A DNA stretch of 47,564 bases from Prevotella sp. Lineage in GTDB: Bacteria > Bacteroidota > Bacteroidia > Bacteroidales > Bacteroidaceae. How positions within the stretch are numbered: position 1 is the first letter of the stretch; each line of letters opens with the position of its first letter. The notes below the pieces were generated by a model. The model ran no database searches. It was given only the letters and a program-made list of their open reading frames with translations, and was not told the origin of the DNA. A program made the translations under genes and the position numbers. Below, piece by piece: positions 6,296 to 46,997 of the stretch. The stretch is taken from NCBI GenBank assembly GCA_017557185.1, contig JAFZAP010000008.1:1-47564 (forward strand), read 5' to 3'.

Positions 6296-7012
6296 ATGGA
6301 AAGGAAAGTCTTTATAAAGGGAAGTTGTTTTGTCACTCTGCTGCTTTGCAGTCTTATTACTCTGTCTTGCACAAGTGAGGCCTACGATACTGGCGACGGC
6401 GACTACAGCTACCTTCGTGCCGACTTTGTGGAAATCCATACCTTTGAAGCACGAAAGATCGACTATGCCATCAGCGACGAAGGCAAGCGAATCACGCCTG
6501 ATCGGCCTTTCTCCGTGAAGTGGGCAGAGAAGGGCGACACCCTCTATCGCGCCCTGTTCTACTACAACCAAGAGCCCGATGCTGCCGCCGAGCCGCTGAG
6601 CCTGCAACCCGTCTATGTGTTGTGGCCAAAGGATTCCGTTGATGTCAAGGCGCAGAAATACGACCCCGTCTCCTTCGAGAGTGCGTGGGTTAGCACCTGC
6701 CAGCGTACCGATCTCACGATCAAAGCCGACCAATCGTCACCCGTCACCCATTATCTCAACTTCGTGTTCCTCGTGAAGACCGGCCAGCCCGACGATGAGA
6801 AAGCCCGCCAGAGCATTGGTGTCATCAGCGAAAAGAGCGACGACGGCTCCCTGCAACTCACCCTTCTCCACGACCAGGGTGATGTTCCCCAATACTATAG
6901 CAGCCGTATCTACGCCAGCATCCCGCTCACTGCCAGCCAGTTGCAGCAGACCGTCACCCTCCACATCAACACATACAACGGTCTCTTTACGCGCACCTTT
7001 ATGGCTCCATAG
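6296..7012 (+). CDS. NigD-like lipoprotein
   Basis: A 238-residue predicted lipoprotein. The signal sequence ends in ITLSC, with Cys25 as the lipidation site. The rest is beta-rich (YLRADFVEIHTFEARKIDYAI; YLNFVFLVKTG) and resembles the NigD-like family common in Bacteroidales, which was first named beside bacteriocin genes but mostly has no proven role. The family call rests on general layout rather than a diagnostic motif. It starts 10 bases after the acyltransferase stop and is probably co-transcribed. A good terminator follows at 7059-7098. Confidence 0.65.
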   Translation: MERKVFIKGSCFVTLLLCSLITLSCTSEAYDTGDGDYSYLRADFVEIHTFEARKIDYAISDEGKRITPDRPFSVKWAEKGDTLYRALFYYNQEPDAAAEPLSLQPVYVLWPKDSVDVKAQKYDPVSFESAWVSTCQRTDLTIKADQSSPVTHYLNFVFLVKTGQPDDEKARQSIGVISEKSDDGSLQLTLLHDQGDVPQYYSSRIYASIPLTASQLQQTVTLHINTYNGLFTRTFMAP

Positions 7013-7058: not shown

Positions 7059-7098
7059 GAGGGTTCCACTTTTTCATAAAGGTGGAGCCCTCCTTTTT
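7059..7098 (+). terminator. Rho-independent terminator after the NigD-like gene
   Basis: GAGGGTTCCACTTT pairs with AAAGGTGGAGCCCTC (with G-T pairs) and is followed by CCTTTTT. Confidence 0.8.
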
Positions 7099-7472
7099 AA
7101 TGCCCTGAATATTGCTTTTATGAGCCCAAAACATTGCTTTAATATGTCTGGAGCAATGCCCTAATATAACGATAGAATTGCCCTAGTTTTGCAAATCAAC
7201 TTATTTTAATCTGTAAATTAACTTAATTTGATGAGTAAATTAACTTAATTTGCTAAGTAAAATAACTTAATTTACTGAATAAATTAACTTAATTTACCGC
7301 ACAAATTAACTTAATTTACTTTACTACCTCATTGCTCTAGTATTATAAGACCATTGAGATAGACAAATAAAAGGATTGCTCTTGACACACGAAAAGGCTG
7401 CTTCACGACCTTCTAAACACCGTGAATCAATCAGTTGTCTTTTATTTAAGCACAAATCACACGATACAAATG
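7099..7472. other. Intergenic region between convergent genes, no gene seen
   Basis: This 370-base AT-rich stretch holds the 22-bp palindrome array (7191-7322). Upstream of it are several scattered ATTGC/GCAAT words (near 7110, 7130, 7152 and 7177), with CATTGCT again just after the array near 7330. A short open frame at 7376 has no recognisable product. I see no tRNA or convincing small-RNA promoter. Confidence 0.6.
7191..7322 (+). repeat. Array 1: six 22-bp units carrying a 19-bp palindrome
   Basis: Six contiguous units of exactly 22 bases start at 7191, 7213, 7235, 7257, 7279 and 7301. The consensus is GTAAATTAACTTAATTTAC, a palindrome around a central C, plus three variable bases. The outer unit at 7191 is the most degenerate. 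The same unit, with the same period and orientation, forms a second array at 26727-26836. Spacers of about 3 bases rule out CRISPR. Confidence 0.95.
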
Positions 7473-7513
7473 AAAAACCCTCTCATTCCAAACGAGGAAC
7501 GAGAGGGTTTTTA
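7473..7513 (-). terminator. Terminator of tdh
   Basis: CCCTCTC and GAGAGGG, with an inner TTCC/GGAA pairing and A and T runs outside, form a strong hairpin. It lies 17 bases beyond the tdh stop and could work in both directions. Confidence 0.85.
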
Positions 7514-7529: not shown

Positions 7530-8483
7530 TTACAGTAGTCGCTTCGAGAGTTGCTCGAGCATGTCCTTGGTCATAGCGGTGATGTCGTACTTCGGCTGCC
7601 AGTCCCACTCGCTGCGGGCGGCAGAGTCGTCGAGGCGGTCGGGCCATGAGTCGGCGATGGCCTGCTTTAGCGGGTCTACATCGTACTCCATCTCGAACTC
7701 TGGCTTGAACTTCTTGATTTCAGCAAAGATGTTCTCAGGTGCAAAACTCATCGATGCGACATTGAAGCCGTTGTGATGGATGAGGCGCGTGGGGTCGGCT
7801 TCCATGAGCGAGATGGCTGCATGGAGGGCGTCAGGCATATACATCATGTCCATGAATGTTCCTTCTTTGATGGGACAAACGAACTTCTCGCCACGCACAG
7901 CAGAGTAGAAGATATCAACGGCATAGTCAGTAGTGCCGCCGCCCGGAGGTGTCATATAGGAGATGATGCCAGGGAAGCGCACTGAGCGCGTGTCGACACC
8001 GTATTTATGATGATAGTAGTCGGAGAGCAGTTCGGTAGTGACCTTCGACACGCCGTAGATAGTGCGGGGCCGTTGAATGGTGTCCTGTGGTGTCATCATG
8101 CGCGGAGTCTCAGGACCGAAGGAGCCGATGGAACTTGGCGTGAACACGGCACACTGGTGCTCACGAGCCACTTCAAGGATGTTCAGCAGGCCGTCGATGC
8201 CGATTCGCCAGGCGAGTAGGGGCTTGCGCTCTGCCACTACTGAGAGCAGGGCGGCTAGGTTGTAGATGCCGTCGATGTCGTAGTTCTTCACGATGTCGGC
8301 AATCTGCTGGCCGTTGGTGACGTCGGCAATGGCCGATGGTCCTCCATCGCGGAGTTCACCCGTGGGTTCGGCACCTGGAATGTAACCTGCCACAACGTGG
8401 TCGCCACCGTATCGTTTGCGCAACTCGCGTGTGAGTTCGCTACCAATCTGACCTGTCGACCCAATCACTAAGATATTCTTCAT
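7530..8483 (-). CDS. tdh: L-threonine 3-dehydrogenase (short-chain dehydrogenase type)
   Basis: Oxidises L-threonine to 2-amino-3-ketobutyrate with NAD+. The 317-residue protein is an extended SDR: Rossmann motif GSTGQIGSEL near residue 9 and YGVSK catalytic Tyr/Lys near residue 142. This is the UDP-galactose-epimerase-like form of threonine dehydrogenase, not the zinc enzyme. The assignment to threonine is strongly supported by the divergent kbl, which makes the next enzyme. MKNILVIGSTGQ at 8483 is the preferred start; upstream in-frame ATGs at 8489 and 8504 are possible. Longer translations run into a heptamer repeat (8534-8565). Confidence 0.9.
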   Translation of the reverse strand: MKNILVIGSTGQIGSELTRELRKRYGGDHVVAGYIPGAEPTGELRDGGPSAIADVTNGQQIADIVKNYDIDGIYNLAALLSVVAERKPLLAWRIGIDGLLNILEVAREHQCAVFTPSSIGSFGPETPRMMTPQDTIQRPRTIYGVSKVTTELLSDYYHHKYGVDTRSVRFPGIISYMTPPGGGTTDYAVDIFYSAVRGEKFVCPIKEGTFMDMMYMPDALHAAISLMEADPTRLIHHNGFNVASMSFAPENIFAEIKKFKPEFEMEYDVDPLKQAIADSWPDRLDDSAARSEWDWQPKYDITAMTKDMLEQLSKRLL

Positions 8484-8521
8484 AATCATTAAGGTATTTG
8501 ACATTATCTTGTTTTCGCTCG

Positions 8522-8529
8522 CAAAATTA
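8522..8529 (-). promoter_or_regulatory. -7 element of the tdh promoter
   Basis: The minus strand reads TAATTTTG, matching TAnnTTTG. The region where a -33 box would lie falls in the heptamer repeat, which offers TTTC rather than TTTG. Confidence 0.5.
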
Positions 8530-8533
8530 CGAA

Positions 8534-8565
8534 AAAGATGAAAGATGAAAGATGAAAGATGAAAG
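8534..8565 (+). repeat. Heptamer repeat array (AAAGATG x4)
   Basis: Four perfect copies of AAAGATG plus a partial fifth lie just upstream of the tdh -7 element. Confidence 0.85.
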
Positions 8566-8690
8566 TTTTTTTGCATCCGTTCGCTCGGCTCTGCCGCTTT
8601 TGCAGTTTTTTAACGGAAAAAGAACTTCTTTAACGTCTCGGAAGGCTATTTATTGAAATATATTTTGTTATTTTGCAGGACAATAATTCT

Positions 8691-16746: not shown

Positions 16747-16753
16747 TCCTGTT

Positions 16754-16788
16754 AGTTGATAGTTGATAATTGATAGTTGACAGTTCTG
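16754..16788 (+). repeat. Heptamer repeat array (AGTTGAT)
   Basis: Period-7 units AGTTGAT, AGTTGAT, AATTGAT, AGTTGAC and AGTTCTG fill most of the gap between argF' and ltaE. Confidence 0.75.
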
Positions 16789-25402: not shown

Positions 25403-26608
25403 TTATCGTTTTTCGTCGGGGTGTATACCATAATATACGCGTAGCGGTGTCGAAAGCACCTTGATGAAGCCTTTCGCCTCGTCGGCCGTCCAGCCGTGCT
25501 GCATCTCGCCGTACTCGCCAAGTTTCGACTTCTGCAGGTCGAAAGCAGAGTCGACGCCCACCGTTTCGAATCCGTACGGGCGCAGGCGAAGGATGGCTGT
25601 TCCGCTCACGTTGCGCTGGCTCGAGGTCAGCATAGCCTCGATGTCGGGCATCACGGGCTCCAGATACTGGCTTTCATGCAGGAACATGCCGTACCAGTTG
25701 GCAACCTGGTCCTTCCAATACTGCTGCCACTTCGAGAGTGTCGACTTCTCCAGTAGGCGATGGGCTTCGATGATGAGCTTCGGAGCAGCGGCCTCGAAGC
25801 CCACGCGTCCCTTGATGCCGATGATTGTGTCGCCGACGTTGCAGTCGCGGCCGATGGCATAGCTGGCACCGATTTCCTCAATCTTCTGGATGGCCTTCAC
25901 TTTGTCAGTGAACGCTTCGCCGTTGACTGCCGCAATCTCGCCTTTGTCGAAGGTAATCTTCAGCAATGCCTCGGGCTCGTCGGCGGTGACATGCTTCAGG
26001 TAAGCCTCCTCGGGCAAGCCCTGCGAGGGGTCGAGAAGTTCGCCGCCACAGATGCTGGTTCCCCAGATTCCCACGTTGTACGAGTACTTCAGCTTGGCAA
26101 AGTCGGCGGTGAATCCGTGTGCGTTCAGATAGTCCACTTCCTCCTGTCGCGACAACTTCTCGTCGCGAGTGAGGGTGATAATCTCCACACCCGGAGCCAT
26201 CACGAGGAACGTCATGTCGAAGCGGATCTGGTCGTTGCCCGCACCCGTTGAGCCGTGGGCGATGGCGTCGGCACCGATCTCGTTGGCGTAGCGCGCGATG
26301 GCCAAAGCCTGGAAGATGCGCTCGCTCGAAACGGAAATGGGATAGCAGTTGTTGCGCATGACGTTGCCGAAGATCATGTAGCGCAGCGACTTCTCGTAGT
26401 ATTCCTGCGTGACGTCGAGCGTTACATACTGAACGGCCCCCAGCTTGTAGGCATTCTCCTCGTTCTTCTTCAGCTGTTCGTCGCTGAAACCGCCCGTGTT
26501 GGCGCAGGCGGCATACACCTCGTAGCCTTCCTGCGACAGTCGCATCACCGTATAGGAGGTGTCGAGTCCGCCGCTGAAGGCCACTACCACTTTTTTCTTT
26601 TTATCCAT
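25403..26608 (-). CDS. argG: Argininosuccinate synthase
   Basis: Condenses citrulline and aspartate with ATP to argininosuccinate. The 401-residue protein begins MDKKKKVVVAFSGGLDTSY, with the N-type ATP pyrophosphatase P-loop, and has AHGSTGAGNDQIRFDM near residue 110, a family signature for citrulline and aspartate binding. An open frame extends 28 codons upstream, but those residues are not family-like, so the start is placed at ATG 26608. Upstream lies the second 22-bp palindrome array. In this pathway variant citrulline is produced after removal of the succinyl group by an enzyme not encoded here. Confidence 0.95.
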   Translation of the reverse strand: MDKKKKVVVAFSGGLDTSYTVMRLSQEGYEVYAACANTGGFSDEQLKKNEENAYKLGAVQYVTLDVTQEYYEKSLRYMIFGNVMRNNCYPISVSSERIFQALAIARYANEIGADAIAHGSTGAGNDQIRFDMTFLVMAPGVEIITLTRDEKLSRQEEVDYLNAHGFTADFAKLKYSYNVGIWGTSICGGELLDPSQGLPEEAYLKHVTADEPEALLKITFDKGEIAAVNGEAFTDKVKAIQKIEEIGASYAIGRDCNVGDTIIGIKGRVGFEAAAPKLIIEAHRLLEKSTLSKWQQYWKDQVANWYGMFLHESQYLEPVMPDIEAMLTSSQRNVSGTAILRLRPYGFETVGVDSAFDLQKSKLGEYGEMQHGWTADEAKGFIKVLSTPLRVYYGIHPDEKR

Positions 26609-26938
26609 ATTTGTCATTTTCTTTGTTGTTTTCGTAAACGTTTTTGCGTGCTCTGTTCCGGCTATCGACATGCTCCAATTCGGCAGGAGCAATCGTCGCG
26701 TGTTTCTGTTGCATTGACCTAGTGAAGTAAATTAACTTAATTTGTTCGGTAAATTAACTTAATTTACTTTGCAATTTAACTTAATTTACTCAGTAAAATA
26801 ACTTAATTTACTTCGCAAATTAACTTAATTTGCAAAACCAAAGCAATGTTCCTTTTGCACTATGTGGTTGCTCTTGTCACTTCAAGTCAATGCTCCACAG
26901 GGATAAAACATATGCTCTGGCCTCGTCAACCCATTGTC
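26609..26938. other. Non-coding gap between the GNAT gene and argG
   Basis: This 330-base gap inside an otherwise compact operon contains the palindrome array at 26727-26836. TTGCATTGA just left of the array and AAGCAATGT just right of it form a short inverted pair. I see no TAnnTTTG promoter with a proper -33 for argG here. Confidence 0.6.
26727..26836 (+). repeat. Array 2: five 22-bp units carrying a 19-bp palindrome
   Basis: Five contiguous 22-base units start at 26727, 26749, 26771, 26793 and 26815. Four begin GTAAA or GCAAA and the third begins GCAAT; all share AACTTAATTT. The last unit reads GCAAATTAACTTAATTTGC, so both arms have changed together compared with the consensus GTAAATTAACTTAATTTAC and the palindrome is kept. 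Period, orientation and sequence equal those of array 1 at 7191-7322. Confidence 0.95.
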
Positions 26939-27535
26939 CTAGCGCTTCGCGTCGATGTTTTTGATGCGTTGCAGCACGTCGTCGGGAATCTTGGCGGGCA
27001 AGTGTTCCTCGGGGTCGTAGAGCATAGCGGTGCAAATGCAGTAGCGTCGGCCGGTTCGCTGCAGCACGTCGAAGTTGATGCAACCCTCGCAGCCGCGCCA
27101 GAAAGCTTCGTCGTCGGTGAGGTCGGCGAAGGTGACGGGCTGGTAGCCAAGCCTTGTATTCATGGCCATAACGGCTGCTCCGCTGGTGAGCGAGAATATC
27201 TTGGCATGTGGCCACCGCGTGCGGGCCAGCGTGAAGGTGAGGTCCTTGATGCGACGGGCCACGCCCTGTCCGCGGAAGTCGGGATGCACGATGAGTCCCG
27301 ACGTGGTGACATACTGCTTGTTGCCCCAGGTCTCGATGTAGCTGAACCCTGCGAATCGGTCGCCGCTGAGCGCGATGACAGCTTTCGCCTCGCGCATCTT
27401 CGTAGCGATATACTCATGGCTGCGCTTGGCGATACCGGTGCCGCGCACCTTGGCAGCTTCTTCGATAGTAGTGAGGATGGTATCGATGTATTTCTCGTGA
27501 GAGGCATCGGCCACCATGACATTGATTTCTTCCAT
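26939..27535 (-). CDS. GNAT acyltransferase, candidate N-acylglutamate synthase
   Basis: A 198-residue GNAT-fold enzyme. The acyl-CoA binding motif is IVHPDFRGQGVARRIKDL near residue 88, followed by SLTSGAAVMAMNTRLGY. The place between argR and argG points to the first step of arginine synthesis, acylation of glutamate. I recall a homologue in Bacteroides thetaiotaomicron being assigned as the N-succinylglutamate synthase from mutant fitness data; that match is from memory and needs checking. It lacks the amino-acid-kinase domain of classical ArgA. An unusual cysteine-bearing C-terminal part (EAFWRGCEGCINFDVL) follows the GNAT core. Confidence 0.78.
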   Translation of the reverse strand: MEEINVMVADASHEKYIDTILTTIEEAAKVRGTGIAKRSHEYIATKMREAKAVIALSGDRFAGFSYIETWGNKQYVTTSGLIVHPDFRGQGVARRIKDLTFTLARTRWPHAKIFSLTSGAAVMAMNTRLGYQPVTFADLTDDEAFWRGCEGCINFDVLQRTGRRYCICTAMLYDPEEHLPAKIPDDVLQRIKNIDAKR

Positions 27536-27627: not shown

Positions 27628-28107
27628 TCAGTCCTTGAGGGTAGGGATGATGGCGCTCAGGCTCTCGATGACGCTCTCGCGGCGGCTGCCCTCCTTGAGG
27701 ATGAGCAGGATGGTGTCATCACCGGCAACGGTACCCAGCAGGTCGGGCATATCGGTGTTGTCGATGTTGTAGGCGATAAGGCTGGCGTAGCCGGGACGGG
27801 TTTTGATGACGCCGAGGTTTCCCGAGAAGTTGATGGACAGATAGCCCGGTGATTCCAGCATCTCGCGAGCCGTCTGTGTGCTACGCACTCGCTTGTACAT
27901 GGTCTCGTTGGGCAGCACGTAGACGTATTTGCCGTTCATCGACGCTGCCTTTGCCACTTTCAACTGCTTGAGGTCACGGCTAAGAGTGGCCTGCGTGAGT
28001 TGGAAACCTTCCTGTTTCAGTTCCTGCAGGAGCTCTTCCTGACTGCCCAGTTCCTTGCTCGAGATGAGCATCTTCAGTGTTTCAATTCTGTTGTTCTTGA
28101 CTTTCAT
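27628..28107 (-). CDS. argR: Arginine repressor
   Basis: ArgR family regulator: a winged-helix N-terminal domain (about residues 1-70, with QEELLQELKQEGFQLTQATLSRDL) that binds operators, and a C-terminal arginine-binding oligomerisation domain (about 85-159, GTVAGDDTILLILKEG). The 159-residue length is usual. The start is at ATG 28107 (MKVKNNRIETL); an upstream in-frame extension to 28161 covers the promoter. It is first in the long minus-strand arginine block and so is probably autoregulated. I could not identify a convincing ARG box by eye. Confidence 0.95.
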   Translation of the reverse strand: MKVKNNRIETLKMLISSKELGSQEELLQELKQEGFQLTQATLSRDLKQLKVAKAASMNGKYVYVLPNETMYKRVRSTQTAREMLESPGYLSINFSGNLGVIKTRPGYASLIAYNIDNTDMPDLLGTVAGDDTILLILKEGSRRESVIESLSAIIPTLKD

Positions 28108-38441: not shown

Positions 38442-41400
38442 ATGCATAAAAAAATAGTCCTTCTCTTCGCATTCTTGTTCATCGCTGCGCTGACATTTGC
38501 ACAGAAGTCGAATGAGCAGCTCGGGGGTGTCTACTATGCCTATCCTGTCACTCAGTCAGAGGCCCTGCCGGCTCCCGCTGGCTACGAACCGTTCTACATC
38601 TCCCACTACGGGCGACACGGCTCGCGCTGGCTGCCCAACGACGAGCGCTACGAATGGGTGCTTGCCTGCTTTGCAGACACCAAGAACCTCACACCACTAG
38701 GCAAGAGTGTACGTCGGCGAATGCAGAAGGTATGGAAGAACGCACGCGGCAACGGCGGACTGCTCACTCCGCTGGGAGCCCGACAGCATGAGGGCATTGC
38801 TGAGCGTATGGTGAGCCGGTTCCCTGAGGTTTTTGCTGGCGACGATGCCCGCCTGTGGGCCCGCTCGAGCACCGTCGACCGCTGTCGCAAGAGCATGCTC
38901 GCCTTCACCGGTCGTCTGCGTGAGCTGTGTCCGTCGGCATCCCTCGATGTAGCCACCAACGAGGCCGATATGGCGTGGCTCGTCGACAATACCCCAGAGG
39001 TGAAAGCGCTGGAGCGGCGTACACGCGTACAGCCCCAGCTTTCCCCCGACCGTTTCATGCATTCCTTGTTCAAAGACCCGTCGAAGGTATTTGCTGCCGA
39101 GACCTCGTCGGCACAGCAGCTGAAACTCCTCTCCGAACTCTTCACCATCGCCACCGATATGCAGGACGTCGAACTCAACGTCAACCTCTTCGATGTCTTT
39201 ACGCGCGAGGAGATGCAGGCCGTCTACGATGCCAATAACCTCCGCATGACCATTTGCAACGGCCGACAGCCGCAGAGCGAGGGAATTCCTGCCCGTGCCG
39301 CCATCACCCTATGGCAGAACATCGTTGCCGATGCCGATGCGATGATTGCTTCTGGCGGTCACGGCGCCGCCCTCCGCTTCGGTCACGACACCAATCTCTA
39401 TCGCCTCCTCTCCCTGCTCGAGTTGTTGCCGTTGCAGTCCGGCGTGTCCGACCGTATGGACGAAATACTGCCTATGGCAGCCAATTTACAGATGGTGTTC
39501 TATCGTAATGAGGAGAACGATGTCGTTGTGCAACTGCTTCATAACGAGCGACCAATTTGTTTTTGTAAATGGCTGGAACTGAAAGCAAAGGTTTCCCGTC
39601 ACATGCATCGCTTGGATCACCTGCGGCAGTTGTGCACGCTGAACACGATGGTGGGAACCGATCAAGCCAACACCCAGACAGCGGGACTCTTTGGCAAGGG
39701 CTCTGAGGAACACGGCCAGACGCTGCCTGCCGTCCTCGCCCCCAACGGCCAGAACTTCTGGACACCGCAGACCCGTGACACCGAACAGAAGTGCATCGCA
39801 CCTTACTATTATGCCGACTCCCTGTTTCAGGGCATCCGTAACAGCCATTGGATTGTGGGAGGTTGCACGCAGGACTACGGTTCGTTCACCGTCGCTGCCA
39901 TTAGCGGCAACCTGCGCACGCGTCCTGTCGATCGTGCTACCCGCTTCTCGCATCAACAGGAAATCTCCCACCCCCACTATTATGCCGTTCGCCTGCCTGA
40001 CGAGCACCTGTTCATTGAGCTCACAGGAGCCAGCCACACCGCCATGATGCGCATCACGCCCGAGCAAGACCAACCCGTACATATCATCGTCAACCATAAC
40101 AGCGACGAGGTCGAAGGCCAAGTGTTTTCTGCCACCTTCCCTCTAGATGCAAACTGCGGTGAGGCTCCCTCCCTGCGGGGGAGGGTTGGGGTGGGGCTCA
40201 ACCCCGTCCACCGCATCTATCAGGGATGGGGCGAGCCGGCAGGCTTCAGCGGACATTTCCTGCTGCAATGCGACGAAGAGCCTATGGCTTCAGGCAGCGA
40301 CAGCACCTGTGTCTGGATGACCGTTCAAGGAAAAGCCTATCAGCCCATCCTGCTGACGATGGCCTCGTCGTTCACCGACCGTAAAGGTTGTGAGCGCAAT
40401 CTCGCTGCTGAGGCTGCGGGCAAGACCTTCGAGCAGATGCAGGCGGAGCTCGCTGAGAAGTGGATCGACCGTCTACACACCATTGATATCGACGACCCCG
40501 ACACCGCCCGCGTCAACCAGTTCTATGGCGCCCTCTATCGCGCCTCCTTCCTCCCCCGGGAGTTCAGCGATGTCGATGGTCGCTTCCCACGCTTTGCCAA
40601 TTCCGCCGATAACTCTCCCCTCTCCTCTCTCCCCTCTCCCCCAAAATATTACACCGACTTCTCCCTCTGGGACACCTACCGCGCCGTCCATCCGCTCTAC
40701 AACATCATTGCGCCCTCCCTCTCGGCACAGATGGTGCAGTCATTGGTCACGATGGCCGAGCAAGGTGGTTGGATGCCCATCTTCCCCTGTTGGAACAGCT
40801 ACACCGCCGCGATGATTGGCGACCACGCATCCTCCGTCATCGCCGATGCCTATGTGAAAGGAATCGCAGAGGTTGATTACGTCACTGCCTATCGCTACCT
40901 GCGCCAGAACGCCTTCAATTCCCCCACACCCGAACAATACAAGAACGGTATGGGTCGCCGTGCGCTGCAGTCCTACCTGCAGTACGGCTACATCCCCTTG
41001 GAGGACAAGGTGCCTGATGCCTTCCACACCGAGGAACAGACCTCGCGCACGCTGGAGTATGCCTACGACGATTTCTGCGTGGCACAGCTCGCCCGCGACT
41101 TCGGCACGGAGGCCGACTATCGCGAACTCATGCGCCGTTCCGGCAACTGGCGTAACGTCATCAATCCCCGAACGGGCTGGGCAGATGGCCGCCACGAAAG
41201 TGGCAAATGGGAAGGGGAGGGCGACCTCACCCACCGTCAACCCTTCATCACCGAGGGTGCCACCTGCCATTACTCGTGGTATGTGCCCCACGACGTAGCA
41301 GCGCTGATTGAGGTGATGGGCGGTCCCAAGCGCTTCGAGGAGAAACTCGACTCGATGTTCGAACAGGGACTCTACTGGCACGGCAACGAACCCTGCCACC

Positions 41401-46900: not shown

Positions 46901-46947
46901 TCCCCGCCGGACTCCTCGGACCGGTAGAGTTGATAGTTGATAATTAA
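43912..46947 (+). CDS. Glycoside hydrolase family 106-type alpha-L-rhamnosidase
   Basis: A 1011-residue secreted enzyme. Signal peptide ends near VVAAQ. The N-terminal catalytic barrel begins RPRVWWHWMNGNITLDGIRKDIEWM and GIGGFHSFDAGMG, followed by VAVASCPGWSNTGGPWV, all hallmarks of the GH106 group that cleaves terminal alpha-L-rhamnose from pectins such as rhamnogalacturonan. The middle has FDWRTTIGELIGESMYATAA and EAYFEAHENGR. A C-terminal jelly-roll domain (YRNTFDMPRRLEKSGRYIL, VVVNGQPLGTLWKEPF) ends the protein. Its composition is very GC-rich. The last five residues (LIVDN) and the stop are encoded by a heptamer-repeat array. I did not map the catalytic pair exactly. Confidence 0.87.
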   Translation: MRNTLLALLLCSASVVAAQDLQSGFLTPPQESRPRVWWHWMNGNITLDGIRKDIEWMHRAGIGGFHSFDAGMGMKPVVEQRLDYMSEPWKKAFRLAVGMADSLGMEVAVASCPGWSNTGGPWVTPEQAMKKLVWTDTIVKGGRRQNLSLLKSQHDRWYADIAVLAVRIPDTEKTLQEMNGLITVSRPAGEEKGPCTILCTFQQPQTIKALSISDGRYRSIWAALPAPVDKFLEASDDGLTFRRICDIPHGSISWQTINIPPTTARYFRVVVPEAPRTPELKLFGTARIDHIEEKAGFASPPDMNDHPTQATADDAVALTDVVDVSSYVDAEGCLSWKAPKGRWRLLRFGYTLTGKENHPASPEATGLEVTKLDSEAFSQFLNYYLDLYRDATGGLMGQRGLHYLLIDSYEAGWETWSPRLADEFRQRRGYSLLPWMPVLTGQIVESAERSEEFLFDWRTTIGELIGESMYATAARIAHERGMEAYFEAHENGRLYLVDGMTAKSHADIPMAAMWTVIPGKQALNSSESMAQSDIRESASVAHLYGKPIVAAESMTVNGHVGGAYCFHPGNLKHTADLEMASGVNRFVIHESAHQPVDDKRPGLGLGQYGQWFNRHETWAEQARAWTDYLARSCYMLQQGSNIADILYYYGEDDVVTDLFAHQHPAIPFGYNYDYLNKDALLGILSYDGRQFVTPAGSSYRLLVIDSHCRHMAPAVVEKLDALRRQGAPVVDLRRQPVDDALRLLTPDVSASDDADLHYVHRRTVDADIFWISNNRHEARTIDVTFRVSGLLPTLWHPDTGQMEAVGYTIHDGVTTVSLDLTPDDAVFVVFQGPAAEQQLVLPQRQQKHLLTVDSPWTVEFLEPQGSNIGPGKPVEFPQLQSYTESADPAIRYYSGTAVYRNTFDMPRRLEKSGRYILHLGQVASLAEVVVNGQPLGTLWKEPFCVDVTPALQAGTNQLEVRVVNTWANRIIGDQQPDCPTKYTYTPANFYRADSPLLPAGLLGPVELIVDN

Positions 46948-46966
46948 TAATTGATAATTGATAATT
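46929..46966 (+). repeat. Heptamer repeat array (GTTGATA/ATTGATA) overlapping the GH106 stop
   Basis: GTTGATA x2, ATTAATA, ATTGATA x2 and ATTG in strict 7-base period; the first units lie inside the coding region and the third supplies the TAA stop. Confidence 0.85.
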
Positions 46967-46997
46967 GGGGCTTGCGTACGTTTTGCGTACCCTTTCG

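What the first reader, a model, noticed from the sequence alone, without database searches (positions are those of the whole stretch)
7191..7322. Array 1 of an unnamed 22-bp palindromic repeat, six units, between convergent genes
Six units of exactly 22 bases share the 19-base palindrome GTAAATTAACTTAATTTAC plus three variable bases. Twenty-two bases is close to two helical turns, so protein bound to each unit would sit on one face of the DNA. The spacers are too short for CRISPR. The array is outside any operon here, while its twin is inside one, so a gene-specific regulator is not the simplest explanation. Candidates are a nucleoid or segregation-protein site, iteron-like sites, or a structured RNA.
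Basis: partly seen in the sequence, partly recalled or inferred. Interest (0 to 1): 0.78.

Follow-up and report, generated by a model that had tools for sequence, protein, structure and literature searches.

The report
Regularly spaced palindrome arrays in Prevotella
The short mirror-image DNA repeats noticed here are one of many such arrays spread along a gut-type bacterium's chromosome, built on a fixed 22-letter spacing with letters that differ between species, which suggests an unknown protein-binding scaffold of the chromosome.

Summary
Array 1 (7191-7322) has six 22-bp units, its twin (26727-26836) five. They are not isolated: 36 array occurrences of this A type were found in the genome, none overlapping a called gene. 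Cores are flanked on both sides by about four units of a second palindrome (B, ~CTAGAGCAWTGCTCTAG) in the same register: a ~14-unit, ~308-bp element with two-fold symmetry and a sharp edge. B-only arrays also exist. On five stretches, arrays lie every ~23 kb (CV 0.34; P=0.00002 against uniform placement, 0.0003 against random intergenic gaps); closer pairs occur elsewhere. Between species B units keep register (58 of 64) at only ~67% identity, so spacing looks selected. Tests for RNA wobble, target-site duplication and phage or plasmid copies were negative. Related genomes carry 21-24-bp palindrome arrays of quite different sequence. Best reading: sites for fast-evolving dimeric proteins that organise the chromosome; the protein is unidentified. 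Nearest published elements: PINSR and BrickBuilt.

The parts
7103..7190 (.). Left flank of array 1: four B-type units (starts 7103, 7125, 7147, 7169) in the 22-bp register
   Evidence: Units listed; match to the palindromic B consensus 9, 11, 13, 12 of 16 from outside inwards, background 4.0; consensus
7191..7322 (.). Array 1 core: six A-type units of 22 bp, ~GTAAATTAACTTAATTTAC plus 3 variable bases
7323..7410 (.). Right flank of array 1: four B-type units (starts 7323, 7345, 7367, 7389), mirror image of the left flank at consensus level
   Evidence: B scores 13, 10, 11, 8 of 16; mirror consensus
7059..7092 (+). Terminator-like hairpin after the NigD-like gene, before the array
   Evidence: consensus scan only
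7473..7512 (-). Terminator-like hairpin after the epimerase gene, before the array
   Evidence: consensus scan only
6428..7012 (+). NigD-like gene, convergent neighbour (longest open frame 6296-7012)
   Evidence: PF17415 3.3e-12
7530..8489 (-). NAD-dependent epimerase gene, convergent neighbour (longest open frame 7530-8576)
   Evidence: PF01370 2.4e-22
26639..26726 (.). Left flank of array 2: B-type units
   Evidence: B scores 7, 10, 10, 11 of 16 from outside inwards
26727..26836 (.). Array 2 core: five A-type units
26837..26924 (.). Right flank of array 2: B-type units
   Evidence: B scores 10, 10, 9, 9 of 16
25403..26617 (-). argG, left neighbour of array 2
   Evidence: PF00764 1.3e-34
26939..27535 (-). 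GNAT acetyltransferase gene, right neighbour of array 2 (argR follows at 27628-28107)
   Evidence: PF00583 1.5e-05; argR PF02863 1.1e-22

Best explanation
The array is one node of a chromosome-wide set of DNA sites. A node is a two-fold symmetric lattice of palindromic units 22 bp apart: typically 5-6 A units in the middle and about 4 B units on each side, or B units only. I infer that each palindrome binds a protein dimer, that neighbouring dimers touch through the fixed 22-bp pitch, and that the particle serves chromosome organisation (domain anchoring, segregation or division-site control) rather than control of particular genes. Protein and sites would change together as species diverge. 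Shown: lattice, symmetry, conserved register, intergenic placement, even spacing on the stretches mapped, species-specific sequence. Inferred: dimer binding, cooperative particle, organising role. Unknown: the protein.
For: Exact 22-bp multiples in freely found hits. Two unrelated palindromes share one register and the right flank mirrors the left unit by unit, with information falling from 11.6-18.3 bits per unit at units 1-4 to about 5 at unit 5. In 8 orthologous array pairs B units 1-4 keep zero offset in 58 of 64 comparisons although 63-71% identical; unit 5 in 8 of 16, units 6-12 in 9 of 105 outside the one flank that is coding (7 of 7 there). None of 36 arrays overlaps a called gene. Even spacing: 15 intervals, mean 23.4 kb, CV 0.34, P=0.00002 (uniform) and 0.00028 (random intergenic gaps); no second A or B array in 33 G000 loci (285 kb) and 20 G324 loci (239 kb) centred on an array. 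No match in viral contigs, plasmids, phages. Deviations inside A units mirror about the array centre, as expected of DNA with a dyad.
Against: No binding protein was identified and no neighbour gene recurs. Positions turn over: at least 2 of 20 G324 arrays are absent from collinear G000 sites, and only one neighbour gene was shared with arrays of G006 (L172/L228). Close pairs exist: C1:15594 and C1:21288, 5.7 kb apart, at 2 mismatches (not in the interval lists), and in G006 locus L234 a second, different 22-bp array lies 2.5 kb from the first. C42 and C7 were chosen for full mapping after one search had shown arrays on them. In G024 the palindromes sit inside longer dispersed elements, as in a mobile repeat, and their overall CV is not significant (P=0.057). 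Avoidance of divergent promoters holds in G000 and G324 but not in G006 (9 of 19 divergent).
Confidence: 0.42

Rival explanations
1. A dispersing, non-coding selfish repeat (BrickBuilt- or PINSR-like) whose copying avoids, or is purged from, the neighbourhood of an existing copy, for example by transposition immunity or loss through recombination. Even spacing is then a by-product.
For: Presence and absence at collinear sites; near-identical arrays at contig ends; longer dispersed elements with conserved flanks in G024; published intergenic repeats in the same order. Mu immunity reaches 5-25 kb (PMC7350765, passages).
Against: No target-site duplication at a fixed place in 28 arrays examined; no copy in mobile-element collections; sharp loss of register only outside unit 4-5 while inside it is kept under 30-37% divergence, which a neutral repeat would not show; 8 of 20 G324 arrays are at orthologous places.
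Confidence: 0.28
2. A transcription boundary: bound lattices act as roadblocks or insulators between transcription units.
For: Intergenic in 36 of 36; convergent 8, divergent 2 of 27 with both neighbours.
Against: In G006, 9 of 19 lie between divergent genes. Array 1 already has a terminator-like hairpin on each side. Boundaries need no even spacing.
Confidence: 0.12
3. Operator arrays of one global transcription regulator.
For: Dimer-type palindromes, many sites; array 2 is near argR.
Against: More genes have the array behind them (39) than in front (22) in G000; neighbours are varied; spacing is even.
Confidence: 0.09
4. A structured non-coding RNA (unit hairpins or one long hairpin).
For: Predicted folding beats shuffles (z -7.65 for the core, -6.28 for the element), as any palindrome array must.
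Against: No wobble bias on the sense strand of tandem arrays (G.T 41, A.C 53); mirrored deviations (left G.T 63/A.C 25, right G.T 15/A.C 85); left and right B units of one array are no more alike than those of different arrays. No Rfam match.
Confidence: 0.03

Closest known systems
[quoted passage not shown] abstract, section 3.4 and passages read)
   Same: Intergenic, non-coding, no terminal inverted repeats, 177-184 copies per genome, about three quarters of the places shared by two strains, mostly absent from strain-specific conjugative and mobilisable transposons, species-group specific, function unknown.
   Different: Described as a 188-bp repeat with no unit structure, symmetry or spacing given; its consensus is in a figure that I could not read, so a 22-bp lattice in it is untested. 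Reported only in a P. intermedia clade.
BrickBuilt of Porphyromonas gingivalis (PMC4596501; abstract, sections on identification and secondary structure, and passages read)
   Same: Dispersed intergenic tandem repeats (19 copies in ATCC 33277), unit number varies, places conserved among strains.
   Different: 23-nt units, leader and tail with inverted ends like IS5-family elements; here 22 bp, in G000 no leader or tail and no duplication signal. G024 elements look closer to BrickBuilt.
REP/BIME palindromes with RAYT transposases (recalled; PMC2817692 seen only as a listing)
   Same: Many intergenic palindromes, species-specific.
   Different: No exact 22-bp lattice or two-unit symmetry known to me.
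Chromosome-dispersed palindromes of segregation or division proteins: archaeal SegB (PMC12284271, passages); Noc and SlmA (recalled)
   Same: Tens of palindromic sites scattered over the chromosome.
   Different: Single short sites, for SegB mostly inside genes (83.7%) and with a motif conserved across genera; here tandem lattices, intergenic, fast-changing.

Membership tests
BrickBuilt MITE | 23-nt tandem repeat | tested here: not met
   22 bp in all arrays of the own genome
BrickBuilt MITE | leader and tail with terminal inverted repeats like an IS | tested here: not met
   In G000 only B units, then unrelated sequence; no duplication signal. Identity of BrickBuilt ends with G000 ends was not compared directly
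BrickBuilt MITE | intergenic dispersed copies | tested here: met
   36 of 36
PINSR | match to the 188-bp consensus | not testable with these tools
   Consensus only in a figure
PINSR | intergenic and without terminal inverted repeats or coding capacity | tested here: inconclusive
   Intergenic, no long gene over arrays; but the element as a whole has inverted symmetry
CRISPR array | unique spacers of about 20-50 bp | tested here: not met
   3-bp linkers
REP/RAYT | associated RAYT transposase | not tested
   no genome-wide search made
Nucleoid-occlusion or segregation sites (Noc, SlmA, SegB type) | cognate DNA-binding protein | not tested
   no candidate found; only neighbours of arrays were looked at
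Nucleoid-occlusion or segregation sites (Noc, SlmA, SegB type) | dispersed over the chromosome with a bias relative to origin or terminus | tested here: inconclusive
   Dispersed; origin and terminus not placed: dnaA found in G024 but GC skew of the sampled stretches was irregular
Rfam RNA family | score above gathering cut-off | tested here: not met
   0 matches in the window

The most novel reading that the evidence does not exclude
Prevotella chromosomes carry a built-in ruler: roughly every 23 kb an intergenic, two-fold symmetric lattice of 22-bp palindromes assembles a nucleoprotein node from fast-evolving paralogous dimers, one for A units and one for B units. Sites and proteins change together so quickly that each species has its own code on the same lattice. 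A second form of the idea: the nodes mimic transposase sites and shield the chromosome from Mu- or Tn7-like insertion by target immunity.
Probability: 0.27. Interest if true: 0.9.

Novelty: new variant of a known kind. Interest (0 to 1): 0.7.

Why it matters
How Bacteroidota organise and segregate their chromosomes seems little studied: one library search for nucleoid occlusion with Bacteroidetes returned a single paper (listing only). A dispersed, evenly spaced, phase-locked site system would give a handle on it, and would be a rare case of a genome-wide DNA code that is rewritten between species while its geometry stays. If it is instead a selfish repeat, it shows a repeat family under strong constraint on spacing, which also needs explaining. 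In practice, contigs of this draft begin or end inside such arrays, so short-read assemblies break there.

Tried and rejected
CRISPR (linkers too short). Rfam (none in the window). Phage, plasmid or viral carriage: exact two-unit pattern in viral contigs, blastn of the element at E 0.01 with low-complexity filter in plasmids and phages (none). A recurrent neighbour gene as source of the binding protein: apart from orthologous pairs, only a few chance pairs of common families, among them a BlaI-like gene (recalled by eye, no family search run) beside two G000 arrays. Target-site duplication (28 of 36 arrays used, none). Long-hairpin compensation (30-31 arrays, none). A gapped alignment of orthologous arrays was too gap-prone and was replaced by the ungapped register test; its anchor is chosen among multiples of 22, which favours register slightly. 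The check that all spacings are 22 is true by construction; the free evidence is. The 15-mer alone in genome contigs is uninformative: 114 stretches, capped, mostly single matches.

Spacing, results for and against: G324 A arrays, none of 14 intervals below 20 kb, P=0.007; G000 A arrays on 4 contigs, none below 19.5 kb, P=0.013; G024, 42 sites, none below 17 kb, P=0.00025, but CV P=0.057. Dropped before counting: one weak A hit at C7:19711; six stretches with no or one array (C112, C113, C114, C115, C116, part of C16), which give no intervals; B places listed only at 2 mismatches (on C1, C2, C5, C7, C11, C19), among them C1:15594 and 21288, 5.7 kb apart. One weak B array (C42:36414) was tested in and out. 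The list is capped at 100 rows and many places count on both strands, so 191 and 208 are not array numbers. Four contig ends (C18, C33, C38, C51) carry the same array sequence and may be two arrays, so 36 may be 34. The 33 G000 and 20 G324 loci with a single array contrast with G006, where 1 of 20 loci has a second array.

Paper searches showed no description of evenly spaced 22-bp palindrome arrays in their listings; most subscription journals are not in that library.

Full report
What was checked. The array at 7191-7322 is six 22-bp units and its twin at 26727-26836 is five. In the window the 19-mer at up to three mismatches gives 20 matches (10 sites on both strands) against none in 100 shuffles. 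Array 1 lies between convergent NigD-like and epimerase genes, each followed by a terminator-like hairpin. Array 2 lies between a GNAT gene and argG, near argR.

The genome. The 15-bp core at up to one mismatch occurs 155 times forward and 150 reverse (mostly the same places on both strands), with 0 and 0 for the reversed control. I fetched 39 stretches and with the window found 36 array occurrences that hold at least one exact core. Four contig ends share one sequence and may be two arrays. In one search hits were found freely and lie at multiples of 22. None of the 36 overlaps a called gene; of 27 with both neighbours in view, 8 are convergent, 17 tandem and 2 divergent. Strong units per array: six in 25, five in 8, and four, seven and two in one each.

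Architecture. Flanks continue in the same register with a second palindrome. Information per unit is 16.0, 14.6, 15.5 and 11.6 bits for left units 1-4 and 18.3, 17.2, 16.4 and 14.1 for right units 1-4, then 5.2 and 5.0 at unit 5 (33-34 arrays). The right flank, reverse-complemented, repeats the left flank unit by unit, including asymmetric bases. The typical element is thus about 14 units, 308 bp, with two-fold symmetry. Three of 28 arrays examined have 7-8 B units on one side.

B-only arrays. The B pair pattern at up to three mismatches occurs 191 times forward and 208 reverse, control 0 and 0; places are often counted on both strands and some are flanks of A arrays. Arrays of B units without an A core were seen on C42, C7, C110, C111, C113 and C115.

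Spacing. C42 (214 kb), C7 (130 kb), the window, 40 kb of C110 and 20 kb of C111 hold 20 arrays with 15 intervals: mean 23.4 kb, sd 8.0, shortest 11.4 kb, CV 0.34. P for so low a CV is 0.00002 under uniform placement and 0.00028 when arrays are dealt at random to intergenic gaps of at least 250 bp. C42 and C7 were picked after one search showed arrays there. Among 36 A and 39 B places listed with at most one mismatch, the 31 same-contig intervals have a median of 23.8 kb and a minimum of 10.8 kb; at two mismatches one search lists one pair 5.7 kb apart on C1, which I could not inspect. No second A or B array lies in 33 array-centred loci of the own genome (285 kb) or 20 of G324 (239 kb). In G324 C22:160-260 kb five arrays are 12-37 kb apart, one of them weak. 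In G006 one of 20 loci (L234) has two arrays of different type 2.5 kb apart. So spacing is even on the stretches mapped, but exclusion is not absolute.

Selection on the pitch. G324 is of the same genus; its contig C22 has the length of ONCG01000001.1 (RUG178, an uncultured Prevotellaceae). Of its 20 fetched arrays, 8 have an orthologous array in the G000 sequence I held. In these, 58 of 64 B-unit comparisons keep zero offset at mean identities of 0.71, 0.66, 0.68 and 0.63; unit 5 keeps it in 8 of 16 (identity 0.40), units 6-12 in 9 of 105, and 7 of 7 in one flank that is coding. Substitutions are common but shifts are rare inside the element only. Two of the 20 are absent from G000 although both neighbours are collinear: 651 against 83 bp and 856 against 124 bp between aligned blocks. 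One falls at a G000 contig end; the other nine are undetermined.

DNA rather than RNA. Within A units, deviations are mostly G.T on the left half and A.C on the right (63/25 and 15/85), a mirror that one transcript would not favour. On the sense strand of tandem arrays G.T and A.C are 41 and 53. Left and right B units of one array are no more alike than those of different arrays (all). Folding is strong, as for any palindrome array.

Other species. In 398 genomes of the genus a two-unit pattern gave 181, 189 and 134 hits per strand in G000, G324 and G006 and at most 14 elsewhere; 47 of 398 have any hit, and many single hits look like chance. Low-count genomes show other palindromes at the same pitch: G260 AAAATAAATTATTTT, G371 and G134 AAAATAGGCTATTTT, G329 AATTTAGTCTAAATT, G362 AAATCACCGTGATTT, G245 AAATTCAGTTAATTT. 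G134, G260 and G006 show A cores with other B flanks. A sequence-blind scan of 100 kb each of four genomes found 22-bp palindrome arrays in three (G024, G061, G075) and none in G184; simulated sequence of the same order-2 composition reached at most 27.0 against 33.0, 33.5 and 38.5. G075 also has one 24-bp array. In other genera G405 has 21-bp arrays and G399 weaker 22-bp ones; G413 and the 18 kb of G410 gave nothing convincing. In 114 loci of many phyla (863 kb, all chosen for one core match) the period-22 scores of 38 or more were five Prevotella-type loci; other high scores were simple repeats at other periods. The A pattern was absent from 55 genomes of 15 other genera apart from an unrelated dispersed repeat in g10 and one chance-level hit in g6. 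G024 differs: its palindromes lie in longer dispersed elements.

Reading. A pitch kept under divergence, palindromy through the centre, two unit types in one register, mirror symmetry, intergenic placement and even spacing fit a protein-bound DNA node better than a decaying repeat, an RNA or an operator. That the role is chromosome organisation is an inference from spacing. Turnover of positions, close pairs, the promoter-facing arrays of G006 and the missing protein are the main weaknesses, and a mobile repeat with mutual exclusion remains a serious rival. PINSR (PMC4755523) is the likeliest published member of the same class, without the architecture described here; this could not be tested.

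Noticed in passing
window 8534-8565, 16753-16785, 40613-40641, 46930-46967: Four 7-bp tandem repeats (AAAGATG, TAGTTGA, CTCTCCC, TTGATAA; 4-5 copies each); two lie in gaps beside genes, one inside and one at the end of a called gene.
   Followed up: partly
G000 contigs C16, C18, C33, C38, C51, C69 (loci L151, L152, L157, L158, L162, L168): Contigs begin or end inside or at arrays; C18, C33, C38 and C51 share one array sequence, so the assembly breaks there.
   Followed up: partly
L264-L283 (G024): Dispersed elements with a conserved leader beside CGTTTCTATATAGAAACG palindromes and 22-bp tail units, about 42 places on a 3.52-Mb chromosome: BrickBuilt-like.
   Followed up: partly
L146:439, L149:582, L151:5578 (G000): Further 22-bp array families: GTACCGCTATGTGGTAGTGGCT, and GCATAGAGTTTTGAGGCATAAC at two places.
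   Followed up: no
L259-L263 (G075), positions 476472, 482772, 486143: Three different palindrome arrays (22, 24 and 22 bp) within 10 kb of one genome, besides a GCAATCTTCGCAAGATTGC family at six places in 100 kb.
   Followed up: no
L297, L298, L300 (G405, another genus): Repeat arrays with a 21-bp rather than 22-bp period, two of them palindromic.
   Followed up: no
G406, G432, G443 (genus g10), G355, G262 and others: A dispersed repeat TAATTAAAATAATTTTATCCACAAATT of another kind.
   Followed up: no
L213:6240-6420 (G324): GC-rich palindromes GTAGGGACGCGGCGTGCCGCGT repeated beside an A array.
   Followed up: no
L234:8527 (G006): A second 22-bp array (CAAAAGCATAGGTTTTG) 2.5 kb from an A-type array.
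   Followed up: partly
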